A program made the translations under genes and the position numbers. 64,000 bases of DNA from Actinomycetota bacterium (GTDB lineage: Bacteria; Actinomycetota; CADDZG01; JAHWKV01). Below, piece after piece: positions 7,516 through 22,772 of the stretch. Under the pieces are notes generated by a model. That model was not told the DNA's origin. It worked only from the letters and a program-made list of their open reading frames with translations, and ran no database searches. The DNA lies in assembly GCA_030447305.1 (NCBI GenBank), contig JAUJPC010000001.1:124001-188000 (forward strand). Reading direction: 5' to 3'. The number at the start of each line of letters is the position of its first letter. Position 1 is the stretch's first letter.

Positions 7516-7559
7516 GCGGGGCTCGCGTAGCGTCAGCCGCCCGGTTATAAATGACAACT

Positions 7560-8615
7560 ATGGACGAGATAAGGCTCACCCAGTATTCCCACGGCGCCGG
7601 CTGAGCTTGCAAGCTCGGTCCCAGTGACCTGGCGCAGGTCGTGCGCCGCTTGGGGGGCAGAACAGGGAAGGCTGATCCAAACCTTCTCCTGGGCCTCGAC
7701 GTGCCCGACGACGCTGCCGTCTACCGGATCAACAACGAGACGGCCCTGGTGCAAACGGTCGACTTCTTCACCCCGGTGGTGGACGACCCCTATCATTGGG
7801 GCGCTATAGCGGTGGCCAACGCCATCAGCGACATCTACGCGATGGGGGCGACCCCACTGACCGGCCTGAACCTGGTTGGCTGGCCGAAGGACCTGGACAT
7901 GGACCTGCTCGCCCGGGTGCTGGAGGGCGGAGCGGACAAGGCCGATGAGGCGGGGTGCGCGGTGGTCGGTGGCCACACGGTGGACGACCCCGAACCGAAA
8001 TTCGGTATGGCGGTGACCGGGATCGTGCATCCGGACAAGATCGTCAAGCTGTCCACGGCCAGCCCCGGCATGTCGATCATTCTTACCAAGCCCCTCGGGA
8101 TGGGGATCGTCGCCACCGCCTGCAAGGCGCAGCGGATCGACAAGGCACTGCTGAACCGGGCTACCAGTATGATGGCAACCCTCAACGCCGGCGCAGGCCA
8201 AGCGATGGTTGAGGTGGGCGCCGCTGCCGCCACCGACGTGACGGGATTCGGCCTCATTGGACACCTGCGGGGGATGCTGGCGGCAAGTGGCTGCTCGGCC
8301 AACCTGATGGCAGACAGCGTTCCGATCCTGGCCGGCGTCGACGAGCTCGCAAGGCAGGGCCTGGTGCCGGGAGGGACTCGACGGAACCGGGATTATTTCG
8401 GACCCTTTGTAGACTTCGATGCGGAGATCGACCCCATGTTGAGGGTCATCATGTTCGATGCCCAGACGTCCGGAGGACTGCTGATAGTGGTGGAGAGGTC
8501 GAAGCAGGAGGCGATGGTGGAGGCTTTGGGCAAGTACGGGACTCCTGAGGCGGCGGTGATCGGGCGTATCGCAGACGGTAGCCCGGGCACCATCCGGGTT
8601 GCCGGCCGGAAATGA
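7560..8615 (+). CDS. selD: Selenide, water dikinase SelD (selenoprotein, UGA = Sec15)
   Basis: SelD makes selenophosphate, the selenium donor for selenocysteine. The ATG at 7560 begins MDEIRLTQYSHGAG; the next codon is TGA (7602-7604) and the frame continues ACKLGPSDLAQ. That is the SelD active-site motif, where other species have Cys (near E. coli Cys17) or Sec before A-C-K. Without reading UGA the catalytic residue would be lost, because the frame opens fully only after the TGA. The rest shows the AIRS-like core (VPDDAAVY, ATDVTGFGLIGH, DAQTSGGLL). Full length is 351 aa. It overlaps the mec start by 4 bp. Its selenoprotein nature implies selA, selB and tRNA-Sec elsewhere in the genome. Confidence 0.93.
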
Positions 8616-16612: not shown

Positions 16613-16699
16613 ATGGGGATAGATGCTCCGGTGGAGCACCAAGAATCCCCCAAGATCGTAGCACCGCGCCGCTTGTCCCAAAGCGCTACCCTTCCCCGC

Positions 16700-17893
16700 A
16701 TGCGCAGTTCTGCCGATGTGGTGGTGATAGGGGGCGGGGTGATCGGCTGCGCGATAGCCGCCGAGCTGGCCGGCTCAGGTGCCGAGGTCCTTCTGCTCGA
16801 AGCTCGTGAGATTGCCCATGGAGCTTCCGGCCGCAACCACGGCCTGATCTTCTATCCACAGAACCCCATCACCGATCCGCTCTACCGGCTGTCGCATCAG
16901 ATGTACGGGGAGCTGGCCGCCGGAGGCGACCTGGACATCAGCCTGGACGAGGCCCCCGTAGGCTTCATCATCCTGGTCGGCAGCGAGCGGCAGTGGGAAG
17001 CCGCCGAGATCGAGGCGAGGGCCTGCGAGACCGGCGGGATTCGGGTGGAGCGCCTCGACCAGGAGCAGTTGCGGGAAGCCGAGCCCAACGTCTCGCCGGA
17101 TCTGCTCGGCGGCTGGTACATCGAGGACGGTTACCGCCTGGATCCGAGAGCCCTGACGCTGGCGCTGGCTCTGTCCGCCCGGGACAAGGGCGCGCAGATC
17201 CAAACCCATGTCGACGTCAAGCAGATCGTCGTGCGAGATGCCAGGGTGGCCGGGGTGGTGTGTGACGAGGGCCCGGTTTTGGCCGGCAACGTGGTGCTCG
17301 CGGCGGGCCCATGGTCGGCAAAGCTGGCCCGGCCTGCCGGCATCGACCTTCCGGTGTCCGGTGCCCGAGGATGGCTTCTTCTCGTATCGCCCAAGGGGAT
17401 GGTATGCGACCACCTCCTGGAGTCTTCCGGCTGGCACCTTATGGCCGGCGACCCGGGCCCGGGGGAGGTCACCGTCGGAGCTTACGGGAATGGTCGCCTG
17501 CCGGCTCCGGATATCGGTCTGCTAATTCAGCCCAGCGCCAACGGCCACGTCCTGGTCGGAGGATCGCGCATCCCGTCATTCCGCCAGGACCCCGAGGGGT
17601 CGGAGGTTGCGCAGATCATTGCCCGTAAGGCGGTGGCGGCAGTCCCCTCCTTAGCTGGAGCGCAGGTGCGGGAGGTCTGGTCCGGTGTCCGGCCGATGAG
17701 CCGTGACGGCCTTCCGATCCTGGGGTGGGCTCCCGCTGTGGAGGGCCTTTTCATCGCCACAGGCCACGGCGGGCAGGGTGTGATGCTGGGCGGGGGCTCT
17801 GCGCGCCTGGCTGCAGAGTTGATCACAGGCACGCCGCCGTTCACGTCACCAGCTCCGTTCGCGGCGGAGCGGGAGTTCTCGTCAACTTCTTAG
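16700..17893 (+). CDS. FAD-dependent oxidoreductase, DAO (glycine/D-amino acid oxidase) family
   Basis: A 397-aa flavoprotein. The N-terminal Rossmann motif is VVVIGGGVIGCAIAAELAG with the acidic end at LLLEA, followed by HGASGRNHG. The C-terminus has WSGVRPMSRDGLPILGW and ATGHGGQGVMLG, typical of DadA/ThiO/sarcosine-oxidase relatives. The substrate is probably a glycine-like or N-methylated amino acid, not decidable from sequence. The ATG at 16700 starts the FAD strand directly; longer starts would run into tRNA-His. Its proximity to the Grd-like block is suggestive but the strand is opposite. Confidence 0.82.
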   Translation: MRSSADVVVIGGGVIGCAIAAELAGSGAEVLLLEAREIAHGASGRNHGLIFYPQNPITDPLYRLSHQMYGELAAGGDLDISLDEAPVGFIILVGSERQWEAAEIEARACETGGIRVERLDQEQLREAEPNVSPDLLGGWYIEDGYRLDPRALTLALALSARDKGAQIQTHVDVKQIVVRDARVAGVVCDEGPVLAGNVVLAAGPWSAKLARPAGIDLPVSGARGWLLLVSPKGMVCDHLLESSGWHLMAGDPGPGEVTVGAYGNGRLPAPDIGLLIQPSANGHVLVGGSRIPSFRQDPEGSEVAQIIARKAVAAVPSLAGAQVREVWSGVRPMSRDGLPILGWAPAVEGLFIATGHGGQGVMLGGGSARLAAELITGTPPFTSPAPFAAEREFSSTS

Positions 17894-18753: not shown

Positions 18754-20183
18754 TCAGCTGTTCCGTTCCAAAAGGACGCTCATTCCATCCGACTGCTGGG
18801 ACATCCGGCCCAGGAACAGACTGCCCTTGGCCATCAGATGGATCCGCTGGGCGTCTCCAACGGTGAGCCGCCGCAGCGCATGTGGCAGGTAGCAAACCGC
18901 CGATGCGAGGTGGCCTTGAGTGGGGGAGAACCCGGGCATTCCCTTGGTCTCGGCGAACTCTCCCATCTGGTCGCGGGAGATGTCGCCCCGGCGAACCGCC
19001 AGCCCGGCGATCATCTTGTAGTTGCGCTCCGGCACGTTTCCCGAGCCCTGGGGTTCGGTGATCTCGGGGTCGTGCAATTCGGTGGCGAAGTCGTCGATAT
19101 CGGCCATCTTCAGCTCGTTGCGCTCGAGAGGCTCCACCGCCAGGGCTTCCATGATCGCCTGGTTTGAGCCTCCGGCGGCGATGCGGTGACGTCCCACGGC
19201 GTCGAGCCGGATCCGCGGGGAGCTGCCGTCGTCCGGACCGATCAAAAAGGCGCAACCTCCCACGACGTCCTCCATGACCGGCAGCTCCTTGCTGAGGTGG
19301 CCCTGGAACTTCATCCCCAGTTTGGGTAGGGAGCCTCCGGCGGCGACGGCCACCCGCTGGAAGACTCCGGCTTTCACCAGTGCAGCAGCCATGACAAGAG
19401 CCGGAACCGGGGCGGCGCAGAAGTTCTTCACATCGGCGCCCGAGGCCTGCCTGAGCCCGGCGGCGTCGGCCATCGCCTTCGCCATGTTCCCTCCACCCCG
19501 CTGGTAGCGGTCGCCAACCGCCTCCTCGGAGCAAGAAATGACGTACTCGATGCTCTCGGGGTCGACGTCGTTGTCCTCCAGCAGGTGCATCAGAGCCAGG
19601 GCGCCGCTCGCCTTGTTGACAAGGTTCTCGAGCATCACGTTTGCGGCGAGGGACTCATCCTCGTGGTGGGGACACTGAACGGTCCCGACGACGTCCTCCA
19701 CCGGCCAGTACAGGTTCAGGGCGCCCTTCGTGCCGGCCTTGCCCTCCAGCCCCCGATCGCCGACGGCCTCCAGGCGGTCAAGGTCGAAGCGTTTGGAGAA
19801 CGGATGGGATGACAGTCCGCCGGCCGCCCGGCCGGCGGCCTCGGACGTCAAGGCGATCAGGTCGAACTCGTCAACCGCCGCCATGAGGCCGAGAAACTCC
19901 GCCTCCGGCATGATCTCGCCGTCGGGTCCGAACCGGGACGCGCCTTCCATGCATAGGGTGGCCCGAGGGCGCTCGGGCATCTGGCGGGGGTGGATCGATC
20001 CCAGGTACGCCTGGTGGGATGGGTAGCCGGTGGCCTGGTCGAAGCTGCGGAGGCTGGACAGGAATCGCTCTTGAATCTCAGGGTTCTTGGGCAGCTCACG
20101 GCCGGCTTGGAGCCGTGGCGCGCCATGCCGGGAAGGTGGGCCAGCACCTGAGAGGCGGCTGTTATTACAGGGTTATCGCTCAT
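18754..20183 (-). pseudogene. grdC: GrdC-like thiolase-fold subunit of glycine reductase-type complex, frameshifted
   Basis: Homologue of GrdC, the KAS III/thiolase-like subunit of protein C. The ATG at 20183 starts MSDNPVITAASQVLAHLPGM, then the frame breaks at about 20098-20104 (GGCCGTGAG appears to lack one C) and continues RELPKNPEIQERFLSSLRSF. From there about 440 codons are open. Thiolase-type features are the Cys in VKNFCAAPVPALVMAAALV, the glycine-rich VAVAAGGSLPKLG and the late His in FSPTQGHLASAVCYLP. No GrdD partner follows. It starts 7 nt after grdB, in one operon with grdE and grdB. Confidence 0.8.
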
Positions 20184-20190
20184 CGGGCTC

Positions 20191-21495
20191 CTAGTTCCTG
20201 ATAGGTCTTGAGGGTTGGAAGACGGTTGGTTTGCTGACCGGCGTGGATACGGCCTTCAAGGCGGTCTCAAGCAGCGCCCGCCGCCACGCCTTCTCTTCAT
20301 TGGTATCGAGTGCCGGGTCGCCGGCGGGGTACGGGATGCCCCGGGTCGGCACTACCCGGGGAGCGCCTACCCTAAGCGCGATCGGAACGAGGTTGCACAG
20401 AAGGGCGGTGGGTATTCCTGCCCTCTCCAACTCCTTGGCAAGCGTTGACCCGCAACGCGTACCGGTCCCTCAGGTCGAGGTAAGGATGGCGGCCTGCACT
20501 CCAGCCTTGCGGAGCTCGGCGGCCCATTCCACGCCGTAGCGCGCCCCGTTGGCCACGGAGGTTCCGTTTCCCACGGTGACGAAGTACTCCGCATACAGAT
20601 TCCCGATCGCTCCCTCGTCCTCCAGCTCTCGGGCGACGTCCAGCGGAAGAATGCGGTTGGGGTCGGCGTTGGCGAAGATCGTCGAGAATCCCCCGTGGAC
20701 CGAGACGTGGGATCCTTCCTCCAAGCCGGGCAGCTCCTCCAGCGGGTAACGCAACCACTTGGTTGACCGAGCCGACTCCAGCCGGCCCGGGTTGCCGGCG
20801 GGTACCAGCCCCCCTTCGGTGAGAAGCGCCACCAGCGCCTGCGACGGGTCGGCGATAGGTCCGGCGGGCGACACCGCGCCGAAGTCGGGCATGGGGATCT
20901 CGGTGGCCTGCCGGTCTCCCGCCAGGCGGGCAAGCGCCAGGTCGACGGCCCGGGAGGCCGCGTTGGCGTCCACCAGCCGGTTGAGGCGGGGAATGCCGCC
21001 GACCAGTCCGTCATCGGCCGTCAGGGCTTCACCCGCGGCCATCTTGAGGGCTGCTTTGGCGACCCTGTCGAGGGTCGTTCCCATCTCCCGGGCGGTGAGA
21101 CCCGTGCCCACAACCGGCGCCGGGGCGGCCTCCGCCACGCCCGGATTCTCGGCGTGCATGGCGGCCAGGGCCACCAGACCCGCTTCCTTGGCGGCCTTGG
21201 CGACCCGCCCACACACAATCCCGTAGCGCCCGCTGGTGAAGGCCGGTCCGGCAATCAGCATCTCGGCGCCCGTGTTACGGAGAAGCTCGACGATCTCATC
21301 CGTGGCGCCCTCCTTCGAGGCGGCGTAGTCGTCGCCGCAGAAAACGGTGGCGACGATCTGGTGCTCTGCACCGAGTAAGGAGGCGAGCTTGCGGCTGGGA
21401 CCGGTGGGGGCCTCCCGGACCTCGGGGCCGATACCCGCCTTGTCCTCTCCGCCGACTCCGGCGAAAAACTGGTTGACGTAGTGGACGATCCTCAT
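20191..21495 (-). CDS. grdB: GrdB/GrdF-like selenoprotein B of glycine/sarcosine/betaine reductase type (UGA = Sec342)
   Basis: The catalytic subunit homologue of protein B. The first 341 codons give a full GrdB-like core (VHYVNQFFAGVGGEDKAG at the N-terminus). Then AAILTST is followed by TGA (20470-20472) and the frame runs on as GTGTRCGSTLAKELERAGIP to a TAG at 20191. TST-Sec-GT-x-TRCG is the known GrdB selenocysteine motif, with a nearby Cys that forms a selenenylsulfide pair. Total 434 aa, the usual length. The start overlaps the grdE stop (ATGA). Calling it two genes would be wrong. The precise substrate is unknown. Confidence 0.92.
20442..20458 (-). promoter_or_regulatory. Bacterial SECIS hairpin of grdB
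   Basis: Eleven nucleotides after the in-frame UGA stands a perfect six-base-pair stem GCGTTG/CAACGC with loop CGGGT (transcript sense). The apical loop starts 18 nt from the UGA and has G in its second position, which fits the published bSECIS rules for SelB recruitment. Confidence 0.7.
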
Positions 21496-22772
21496 GCCGG
21501 AGCCTCCGTTGCGCAGGTGAGCCGGCCCCAGCCGATCGGGCTGAGACTGCCGTAGACAGCGGCCACCGGCAGGGTCATCTCGGCCTTGGCGTCCAACCCG
21601 TTGAGGTCGACGACCTCACCGCCCAGAGCGTTGTCGACGGCGTCCAGGGTGATCCGCTCGTCGTAGTTGCCGGTGCTGACCATGGCGGTTGCGGTGGTGG
21701 GTGGGGCGACCAGGGGCGGCCCCAGGCCTTCGGGACCGCTCATCTCGGCGAAGATGCCGATTCCGACGAGTCCCATCGACTCCAGCGCGTCGACCTTCAG
21801 GGAGATGTCCGAGTCGGCGTTGCCGCCGCCCTCTTTGGTGACGATCGCGGCGTCCAGCCCGAGCTGGCGCGCCAGCCGGGCGGCGTGCGCGGAGGTCAGC
21901 TCCTTCAGGGTCTGGTCGACCGGCTCGGGTGACAGGATCACGCCGCCGAAGGTCAGGTTTCTGCCATTCCTTTCCCGCAGGGCGGCAACGACCGGGTTGT
22001 TCTGGTGCACAAAGGTGGGGTTCTTGAGGGCCGGATGGCCGTACTGGCCGCTTACCACGGCGCCGTCGTCCAGCTCGTTGGGATCGATGGCGGTCGGGAG
22101 CGAGTTCGCCATAGTCCGGCCGTAAACGAAGACGTCCTTGAAAGCACCCTGCGTCTGCAGGTTGATGATGGTCCCCACCCGGGGAAGGTCAGAGTCAGAC
22201 CTTGGATCGAGGGCCGCCAGCTTTTCGACTCCGTCGGGCCTGATGTCCAGGGCCAGCTCGGCCAGTGCCACGGCCACCCGCATTGCTCCCAGTCGTAGCG
22301 CCTCGTCGACCTGGGTCCACGAGGCGCCCTCGGCTGGTGCGAACTCGATCACCAGATTGTTGGTGGAGCCGAGAAACGAGAGCTCGGCCGTCGGACCGGA
22401 CATCTGCACCATGCCCTCCTGCGCTCGGGGAAGCTTGCCGGCAACCACAACCGCAGCACCTTTCAGCACGTGGGTAACGCCCTCGCCCTGAGCGGTGGCG
22501 GGACCCAGGAACCCCGGGAAGATGCCGGCTCCGCCGGGGCCTTTGGTGCGGGGCTCCATGGAGTCGAGGATCTTAATGATTCGCACGCTCTCGCCGGGCC
22601 GTGCCCAGGACAGCCGGGTCGAGGCGAGTGCAGGGCTCCTGAGCAGGGCCTGAAGTTCTTCTTCCGAAACGACAAGGTTTCCACCGCTCAGTCCGGCTGC
22701 ATCTCCAAACTCCGCATGGCGAACATGGTGAACCAACCGTTCCAGGCCCTTGAAGCCGTTCTCTTCAGCCAC
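21492..22772 (-). CDS. grdE: GrdE/GrdG-like subunit of glycine/betaine reductase type, lacking the internal cysteine
   Basis: A 426-aa homologue of the B-component proprotein (GrdE/G/I). Blocks include RIIKILDSMEPRTKGPG, TNNLVIEFAP, LKNPTFVHQNNPVVAALRER and GIGIFAEMSGPEGLGPP. In characterised proteins of this family the chain self-cleaves at an internal cysteine to form a pyruvoyl group. Here the only cysteine of the whole protein is at about residue 421 (RLTCATEAPA), so that chemistry looks impossible. It is first in the grdE-grdB-grdC operon and overlaps grdB by 4 bp. The gene symbol marks homology, not proven function. Confidence 0.85.
   Translation of the reverse strand: MAEENGFKGLERLVHHVRHAEFGDAAGLSGGNLVVSEEELQALLRSPALASTRLSWARPGESVRIIKILDSMEPRTKGPGGAGIFPGFLGPATAQGEGVTHVLKGAAVVVAGKLPRAQEGMVQMSGPTAELSFLGSTNNLVIEFAPAEGASWTQVDEALRLGAMRVAVALAELALDIRPDGVEKLAALDPRSDSDLPRVGTIINLQTQGAFKDVFVYGRTMANSLPTAIDPNELDDGAVVSGQYGHPALKNPTFVHQNNPVVAALRERNGRNLTFGGVILSPEPVDQTLKELTSAHAARLARQLGLDAAIVTKEGGGNADSDISLKVDALESMGLVGIGIFAEMSGPEGLGPPLVAPPTTATAMVSTGNYDERITLDAVDNALGGEVVDLNGLDAKAEMTLPVAAVYGSLSPIGWGRLTCATEAPA

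What the first reader, a model, noticed from the sequence alone, without database searches (positions are those of the whole stretch)
20191..21495. GrdB-like selenoprotein split by a Sec UGA, with bSECIS
The stop at 20470-20472 is followed in frame by GTGTRCGSTLAKELERAGIP, and a six-pair hairpin with a suitable loop starts 11 nt later. Together with the selenoprotein SelD this is strong evidence for read-through. GrdB is a Stickland enzyme component of anaerobic Firmicutes, so an actinobacterial copy is notable.
Basis: partly seen in the sequence, partly recalled or inferred. Interest (0 to 1): 0.7.

Follow-up and report, generated by a model that had tools for sequence, protein, structure and literature searches.

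The report
Actinobacterial Grd-like selenoprotein without GrdD
A stop codon inside this actinobacterial gene is really read as selenocysteine, and the gene belongs to a glycine-reductase-like enzyme set that has lost the parts needed for ordinary glycine fermentation, so it probably acts on another compound and yields another product.

Summary
The UGA at 20472-20470 (minus strand) lies inside a 434-residue protein that matches selenoprotein B models end to end. All 69 fetched homologues that span the site have UGA there. A covarying 6-bp hairpin with a GG loop starts 11 nt downstream. The genome has tRNA-Sec, SelA, SelB, a Sec-containing SelD, and GrdA with its own UGA.

The label "GrdB, Stickland enzyme" does not hold. 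The protein scores below every glycine, sarcosine and betaine cut-off, fails a published GrdB motif that clostridial copies meet, and forms a fully supported actinobacterial clade. Its partner alpha subunit (21492-22772) lacks the cysteine that becomes the pyruvoyl cofactor binding glycine. GrdC is present, but GrdD, which completes acetyl-phosphate formation, is absent from this genome and from 14 other actinobacterial genomes with the system. Acetate kinase is absent from 12 of the 15. The genome carries two haem-copper oxidases.

Best reading: a selenium-dependent Grd-type reductase that works on a substrate without a free amino group and passes its acyl product from GrdA to GrdC and on to an acceptor other than phosphate, perhaps CoA. 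Substrate and acceptor are inferred. It is a new variant of a known kind. Here grdC carries a one-base frameshift.

The parts
20191..21495 (-). grdB-like gene, 434 aa with Sec342 (protein B, beta subunit)
20470..20472 (-). UGA read as selenocysteine, in motif UGTGTRC (Sec342, Cys348)
   Evidence: 69/69 homologues spanning the site have TGA here; genome has tRNA-Sec, SelA, SelB, SelD
20442..20458 (-). bSECIS hairpin, 6 bp stem GCGTTG/CAACGC with loop CGGGT, starting 11 nt after the UGA
21492..22772 (-). grdE-like gene, alpha subunit of protein B, 426 aa; pyruvoyl-site Cys replaced by Tyr (SGQY for SGNC); overlaps the grdB start by 4 nt
18754..20183 (-). grdC-like gene (component C beta subunit); N-terminal ~30 codons in a second frame because of a one-base gap near 20097; Cys188 of the main frame is the invariant thiol
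7551..8615 (+). selD, selenide water dikinase, itself with Sec at residue 18

Best explanation
The gene encodes a true selenoprotein, the Sec-bearing beta subunit of protein B in a Grd-type reductase complex. Shown from sequence: UGA decoding as Sec with a bSECIS and full machinery; a partner alpha subunit without the pyruvoyl cysteine; GrdC; and an unlinked GrdA selenoprotein. GrdD is absent. Inferred: Sec342 attacks the alpha carbon of a small carboxylate whose leaving group is not a free amine (a quaternary ammonium such as betaine, or another group). The carboxymethyl group passes to Sec of GrdA and becomes an acyl seleno/thioester. The acyl group moves to the invariant cysteine of the thiolase-like GrdC, and GrdC gives it to an acceptor other than phosphate, most simply CoA. 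Thioredoxin supplies the electrons; a dedicated one sits in the operon of many relatives. The host lineage respires oxygen and feeds the product into central metabolism rather than gaining ATP by the Stickland route.
For: Read-through. GrdA with UGA in the CxxU motif. Alpha subunit: pyruvoyl Cys in 20/20 primary alpha subunits from loci with GrdD, Tyr/Phe in 17/17 of the actinobacterial clade, Phe in the betaine partner. GrdC found in 15/15 genomes, GrdD over cut-off in 0/15, GrdA in 14/15. GrdD beside GrdC in 20/20 clostridial-type loci and 0 of 29 distinct others; the GrdD model scores 614 bits on a control. Acetate kinase absent from 12/15, including this genome. GrdC Cys188 and His357 invariant in 48/48, with thiolase-family similarity. 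Operon grdE-grdB-grdC-(trx)-grdA in relatives. Two haem-copper oxidases. Fully supported clade.
Against: Substrate and acceptor have no direct evidence; no transporter or catabolic gene is consistently linked. In this genome grdC has a one-base frameshift, so the system may be broken here or the assembly wrong; three congeners have it intact. The Rossmann-like fold matches are too weak to help. Three relatives do have acetate kinase. The genome could hide a diverged GrdD below model detection.
Confidence: 0.68

Rival explanations
1. A canonical GrdB of glycine reductase, used for Stickland fermentation as in clostridia.
For: Same family (TIGR01918 439 bits); GrdA, GrdC and Sec machinery present.
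Against: TIGR01917 410 bits against cut-off 602; published GrdB motif failed while clostridial controls pass; no pyruvoyl Cys; no GrdD; no acetate kinase; aerobic oxidases.
Confidence: 0.05
2. A betaine reductase like GrdHI: Sec displaces trimethylamine from glycine betaine, with no Schiff base needed.
For: The alpha subunit lacks the pyruvoyl Cys as in GrdI (PMC10838667). An MtaA-like methyltransferase gene adjoins the operon in two genomes of the same order.
Against: GrdH model 377 bits against cut-off 775; separate from GrdH in the tree; no betaine transporter seen beside the genes; the methyltransferase gene is not conserved elsewhere.
Confidence: 0.3
3. A reductive detoxification or dehalogenation enzyme like fluoroacetate reductase FarEB, cutting a carbon-heteroatom bond in a substituted acetate.
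For: FarE is the second-best model for the alpha subunit (131.9 bits); FarE also lacks the pyruvoyl Cys (PMC10838667).
Against: Far below the FarE cut-off of 675; no far-type transporter or radical SAM gene nearby; Cys348 of UxxxxxC is kept here.
Confidence: 0.12
4. The UGA is a true stop and the downstream frame is a relic.
For: A 341-codon frame ends there.
Against: Conserved protein sequence on both sides and 69/69 UGA in homologues; covarying bSECIS; full Sec machinery.
Confidence: 0.02

Closest known systems
Glycine reductase protein B (GrdB/GrdE), clostridia
   Same: Alpha/beta arrangement, Sec in a UGTxTRCG motif, bSECIS position, use with GrdA and GrdC
   Different: No pyruvoyl Cys in alpha, GrdB motif not met, no GrdD, no acetate kinase
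Betaine reductase protein B (GrdH/GrdI)
   Same: Alpha subunit without the pyruvoyl cysteine
   Different: Beta subunit far below the GrdH cut-off and in another part of the tree; no linked betaine transporter
Fluoroacetate reductase (FarB/FarE)
   Same: Alpha subunit without the pyruvoyl cysteine; Sec attack on an alpha carbon proposed
   Different: Far below the FarE cut-off; Cys after Sec retained; other neighbours
Sarcosine reductase protein B (GrdF/GrdG)
   Same: Among the best NCBIfam models for both subunits (beta 423, alpha 225 bits)
   Different: Both far below cut-off (800, 780); GrdG-type pyruvoyl Cys and GrdF motif missing

Membership tests
Selenoprotein B family (TIGR01918 / PF07355) | Full-length model match above curated cut-off | tested here: met
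   439.3 bits, cut-off 65.45, positions 1-431
Selenoprotein B family (TIGR01918 / PF07355) | In-frame UGA with bSECIS and Sec machinery | tested here: met
Glycine reductase GrdB/GrdE | GrdB equivalog score | tested here: not met
   TIGR01917 410.3 against 602.2; control L028 845.5
Glycine reductase GrdB/GrdE | Published GrdB sequence motif (PMC9751293) | tested here: not met
   0/18 in the actinobacterial clade; met by clostridial controls
Glycine reductase GrdB/GrdE | Alpha-subunit cysteine that forms the pyruvoyl group | tested here: not met
   SGQY in place of SGNC; the only Cys in P0003 is near the C-terminus
Glycine reductase GrdB/GrdE | GrdA selenoprotein in the genome | tested here: met
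   NF040748 191.9 bits, UGA in CFVU
Glycine reductase GrdB/GrdE | Component C with both GrdC and GrdD | tested here: not met
   GrdC yes; GrdD no
Glycine reductase GrdB/GrdE | Reduction of glycine to acetyl phosphate and ammonia | not testable with these tools
   needs enzyme assay
Betaine reductase GrdH/GrdI | GrdH model above cut-off | tested here: not met
   377.4 against 775
Betaine reductase GrdH/GrdI | Alpha subunit lacks pyruvoyl cysteine | tested here: met
Sarcosine reductase GrdF/GrdG | GrdF model and motif | tested here: not met
   422.7 against 800; motif not met, but no sequence in the set met the GrdF motif, so that pattern has no positive control here
Fluoroacetate reductase FarE | FarE model above cut-off | tested here: not met
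   131.9 against 675
D-proline reductase PrdB | PrdB model above cut-off | tested here: not met
   79.1 against 300

The most novel reading that the evidence does not exclude
A GrdD-less, pyruvoyl-less form of the Grd selenoenzyme complex exists in mostly uncultured, apparently oxygen-respiring lineages (Actinomycetota, and by local evidence Acidobacteriota, Rokubacteria, SAR202, Tectomicrobia). It cleaves a non-amine substituted carboxylate and delivers the acyl group by GrdC to CoA or another acceptor, a metabolic use of Grd chemistry outside fermentation.
Probability: 0.45. Interest if true: 0.72.

Novelty: new variant of a known kind. Interest (0 to 1): 0.52.

Why it matters
Grd complexes are treated as a Stickland fermentation system of anaerobes that makes acetyl phosphate. 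If oxygen-respiring actinobacteria keep selenocysteine for a Grd complex without GrdD or the pyruvoyl cofactor, both the substrate range and the product of this chemistry are wider than described, and automatic labels such as 'glycine reductase' on these genes mislead metabolic models. It also gives one reason why these actinobacteria retain Sec decoding: in Solirubrobacteraceae the operon lies beside selA, selB and selD.

Tried and rejected
No solved structure is related by sequence to the three subunits. AlphaFold2 gave a confident monomer (pLDDT 90, pTM 0.56), but Foldseek against PDB gave only weak Rossmann-like matches (TM 0.2 or less by query length), so no function was read from it. The viral fold search was submitted without good reason and not collected. 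Four weak GrdD-model matches in relatives (27-33 bits, cut-off 350) were taken as PlsX-like, since such matches also ring in 7 control genomes. No operon thioredoxin was found beside the window genes or the genome's grdA. Literature searches found no paper on a GrdD-less Grd system or on this actinobacterial clade; the library lacks most subscription journals.

Full report
Observation. On the minus strand a 341-codon frame runs from 21495 and ends at TGA 20472-20470. Read with TGA as Sec it continues to a TAG stop at 20193-20191, giving 434 residues. TIGR01918 matches residues 2-427 at 439 bits without a break. A scan of one genome per species fetched 70 loci encoding relatives. One (L075) ends before the site; the other 69 all have TGA at the equivalent codon and none has a cysteine codon.

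The hairpin. After UGA come 11 nt, then GCGTTG, loop CGGGT, and CAACGC. In 71 distinct sequences the six pairs are 96.5% standard. Fifty-four cells change on both sides (shuffled mean 16.4, none of 500 shuffles as high), and sliding the partner by 1-3 columns drops pairing to 25-71%. Protein coding could mimic some of this, so I made a separate test: the third base of the Ser/Ala codon in the 3' arm is free to vary, yet it complements its partner in 80 of 81 genes, against 10.9 expected from codon use in the same genes. In the actinobacterial clade it is 17 of 18 against 0.8. Related sequences are not independent, so these numbers show direction, not an exact probability. The loop begins with GG after the closing C in every sequence, but a glycine codon forces that.

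Machinery. The genome (2.88 Mb, 98% complete, 3% contamination) holds tRNA-Sec at 77 bits, SelB at 327 bits, SelA beside it at 517 bits, and SelD in this window at 383 bits with its own Sec at residue 18. It also holds GrdA at 192 bits against a cut-off of 130, with UGA in CFVU. The host is actinobacterial: genome G104, placed in the same genus as the window's genome, has a grd contig of the same length (18,526 bases) as a record titled Actinomycetes bacterium OFTM241.

Not a glycine reductase. The beta subunit is below every specific cut-off: glycine 410 of 602, sarcosine 423 of 800, betaine 377 of 775, proline 79 of 300; a clostridial control scores 845 on the glycine model. A GrdB motif published for Stickland phyla (PMC9751293) is met by clostridial copies but by none of the 18 actinobacterial ones, most of which read VHGGFS where the motif has AHGGxD. 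The tree puts the 18 together with 100/100 support. The alpha subunit (21492-22772) has SGQY where glycine and sarcosine enzymes have SGNC. The cysteine is present in all 20 primary alpha subunits from loci with GrdD and replaced by Tyr or Phe in all 17 aligned actinobacterial ones. In the literature a cysteine of the GrdE proprotein becomes the pyruvoyl group, and GrdI and FarE lack it (PMC9908766, PMC10838667); that this SGNC cysteine is the one is my reading of the alignment. A Schiff base with a free amine is therefore not expected here.

No GrdD. Protein C of glycine reductase is encoded by GrdC and GrdD and makes acetyl phosphate (PMC9908766). GrdC is found in all 15 actinobacterial genomes with a full-length selenoprotein B and GrdA in 14; the exception is only 81% complete. 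GrdD is found in none over cut-off, although the model scores 614 bits on a clostridial GrdD. Among fetched loci, GrdD stands beside GrdC in 20 of 20 clostridial-type cases and in none of 29 distinct others, which include Acidobacteria, Rokubacteria, SAR202 and Tectomicrobia; for those non-actinobacterial contigs this is local absence only. Acetate kinase is missing from 12 of the 15 genomes, this one included. Two haem-copper oxidases point to oxygen respiration.

How it may work. The invariant GrdC cysteine (188) and histidine (357) across 48 proteins, with weak thiolase similarity, fit acyl transfer through an enzyme thioester. Without GrdD another acceptor is needed; CoA is the simplest, but this is inference. 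In relatives the order is grdE-grdB-grdC-grdA, often with a thioredoxin gene between grdC and grdA, and in Solirubrobacteraceae beside selA, selB and selD (the sel gene identities there are read from sequence, not scanned). Other neighbours differ between lineages, so they do not name the substrate.

Caveat. In this genome grdC has one base fewer than its congeners near 20097, which puts its first 30 or so codons in another frame. It may be a sequencing error or a real loss.

Verdict. The read-through claim stands at about 0.98. The name GrdB and the Stickland role do not. It is a new variant of the Grd kind with unknown substrate.

Noticed in passing
window 20090-20110 (-): One-base gap in grdC relative to L019 and L024 shifts the frame after about 30 codons; sequencing error or real loss.
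   Followed up: partly
window 7551-8615 (+): SelD is itself a selenoprotein (Sec18), whereas SelD beside the grd operon in Solirubrobacteraceae reads Cys at the equivalent motif.
   Followed up: partly
window 16613-17893 (+): A DAO-family FAD oxidase (glycine oxidase-like) lies beyond grdC on the opposite strand, and again in congeners L019 and L141.
   Followed up: partly
about 60 Actinomycetota genomes, e.g. G082 and G115: Short proteins matching mostly the C-terminal half of selenoprotein B, most with one in-frame TGA and some with two, are common in the phylum; not characterised here.
   Followed up: no
L147 12781-13773 and L148 12147-13130 (+): An MtaA/CmuA-like methyltransferase gene stands beside the grd operon in two genomes of the same order.
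   Followed up: partly
L135 and L136: A second actinobacterial grd operon type is followed by aldehyde dehydrogenase, a dehydrogenase, an FGGY kinase and a binding-protein transporter, suggesting another substrate.
   Followed up: no
GrdC of the actinobacterial main clade (P0004 residue 363): A second cysteine replaces an otherwise near-invariant proline after the conserved QGH motif.
   Followed up: partly
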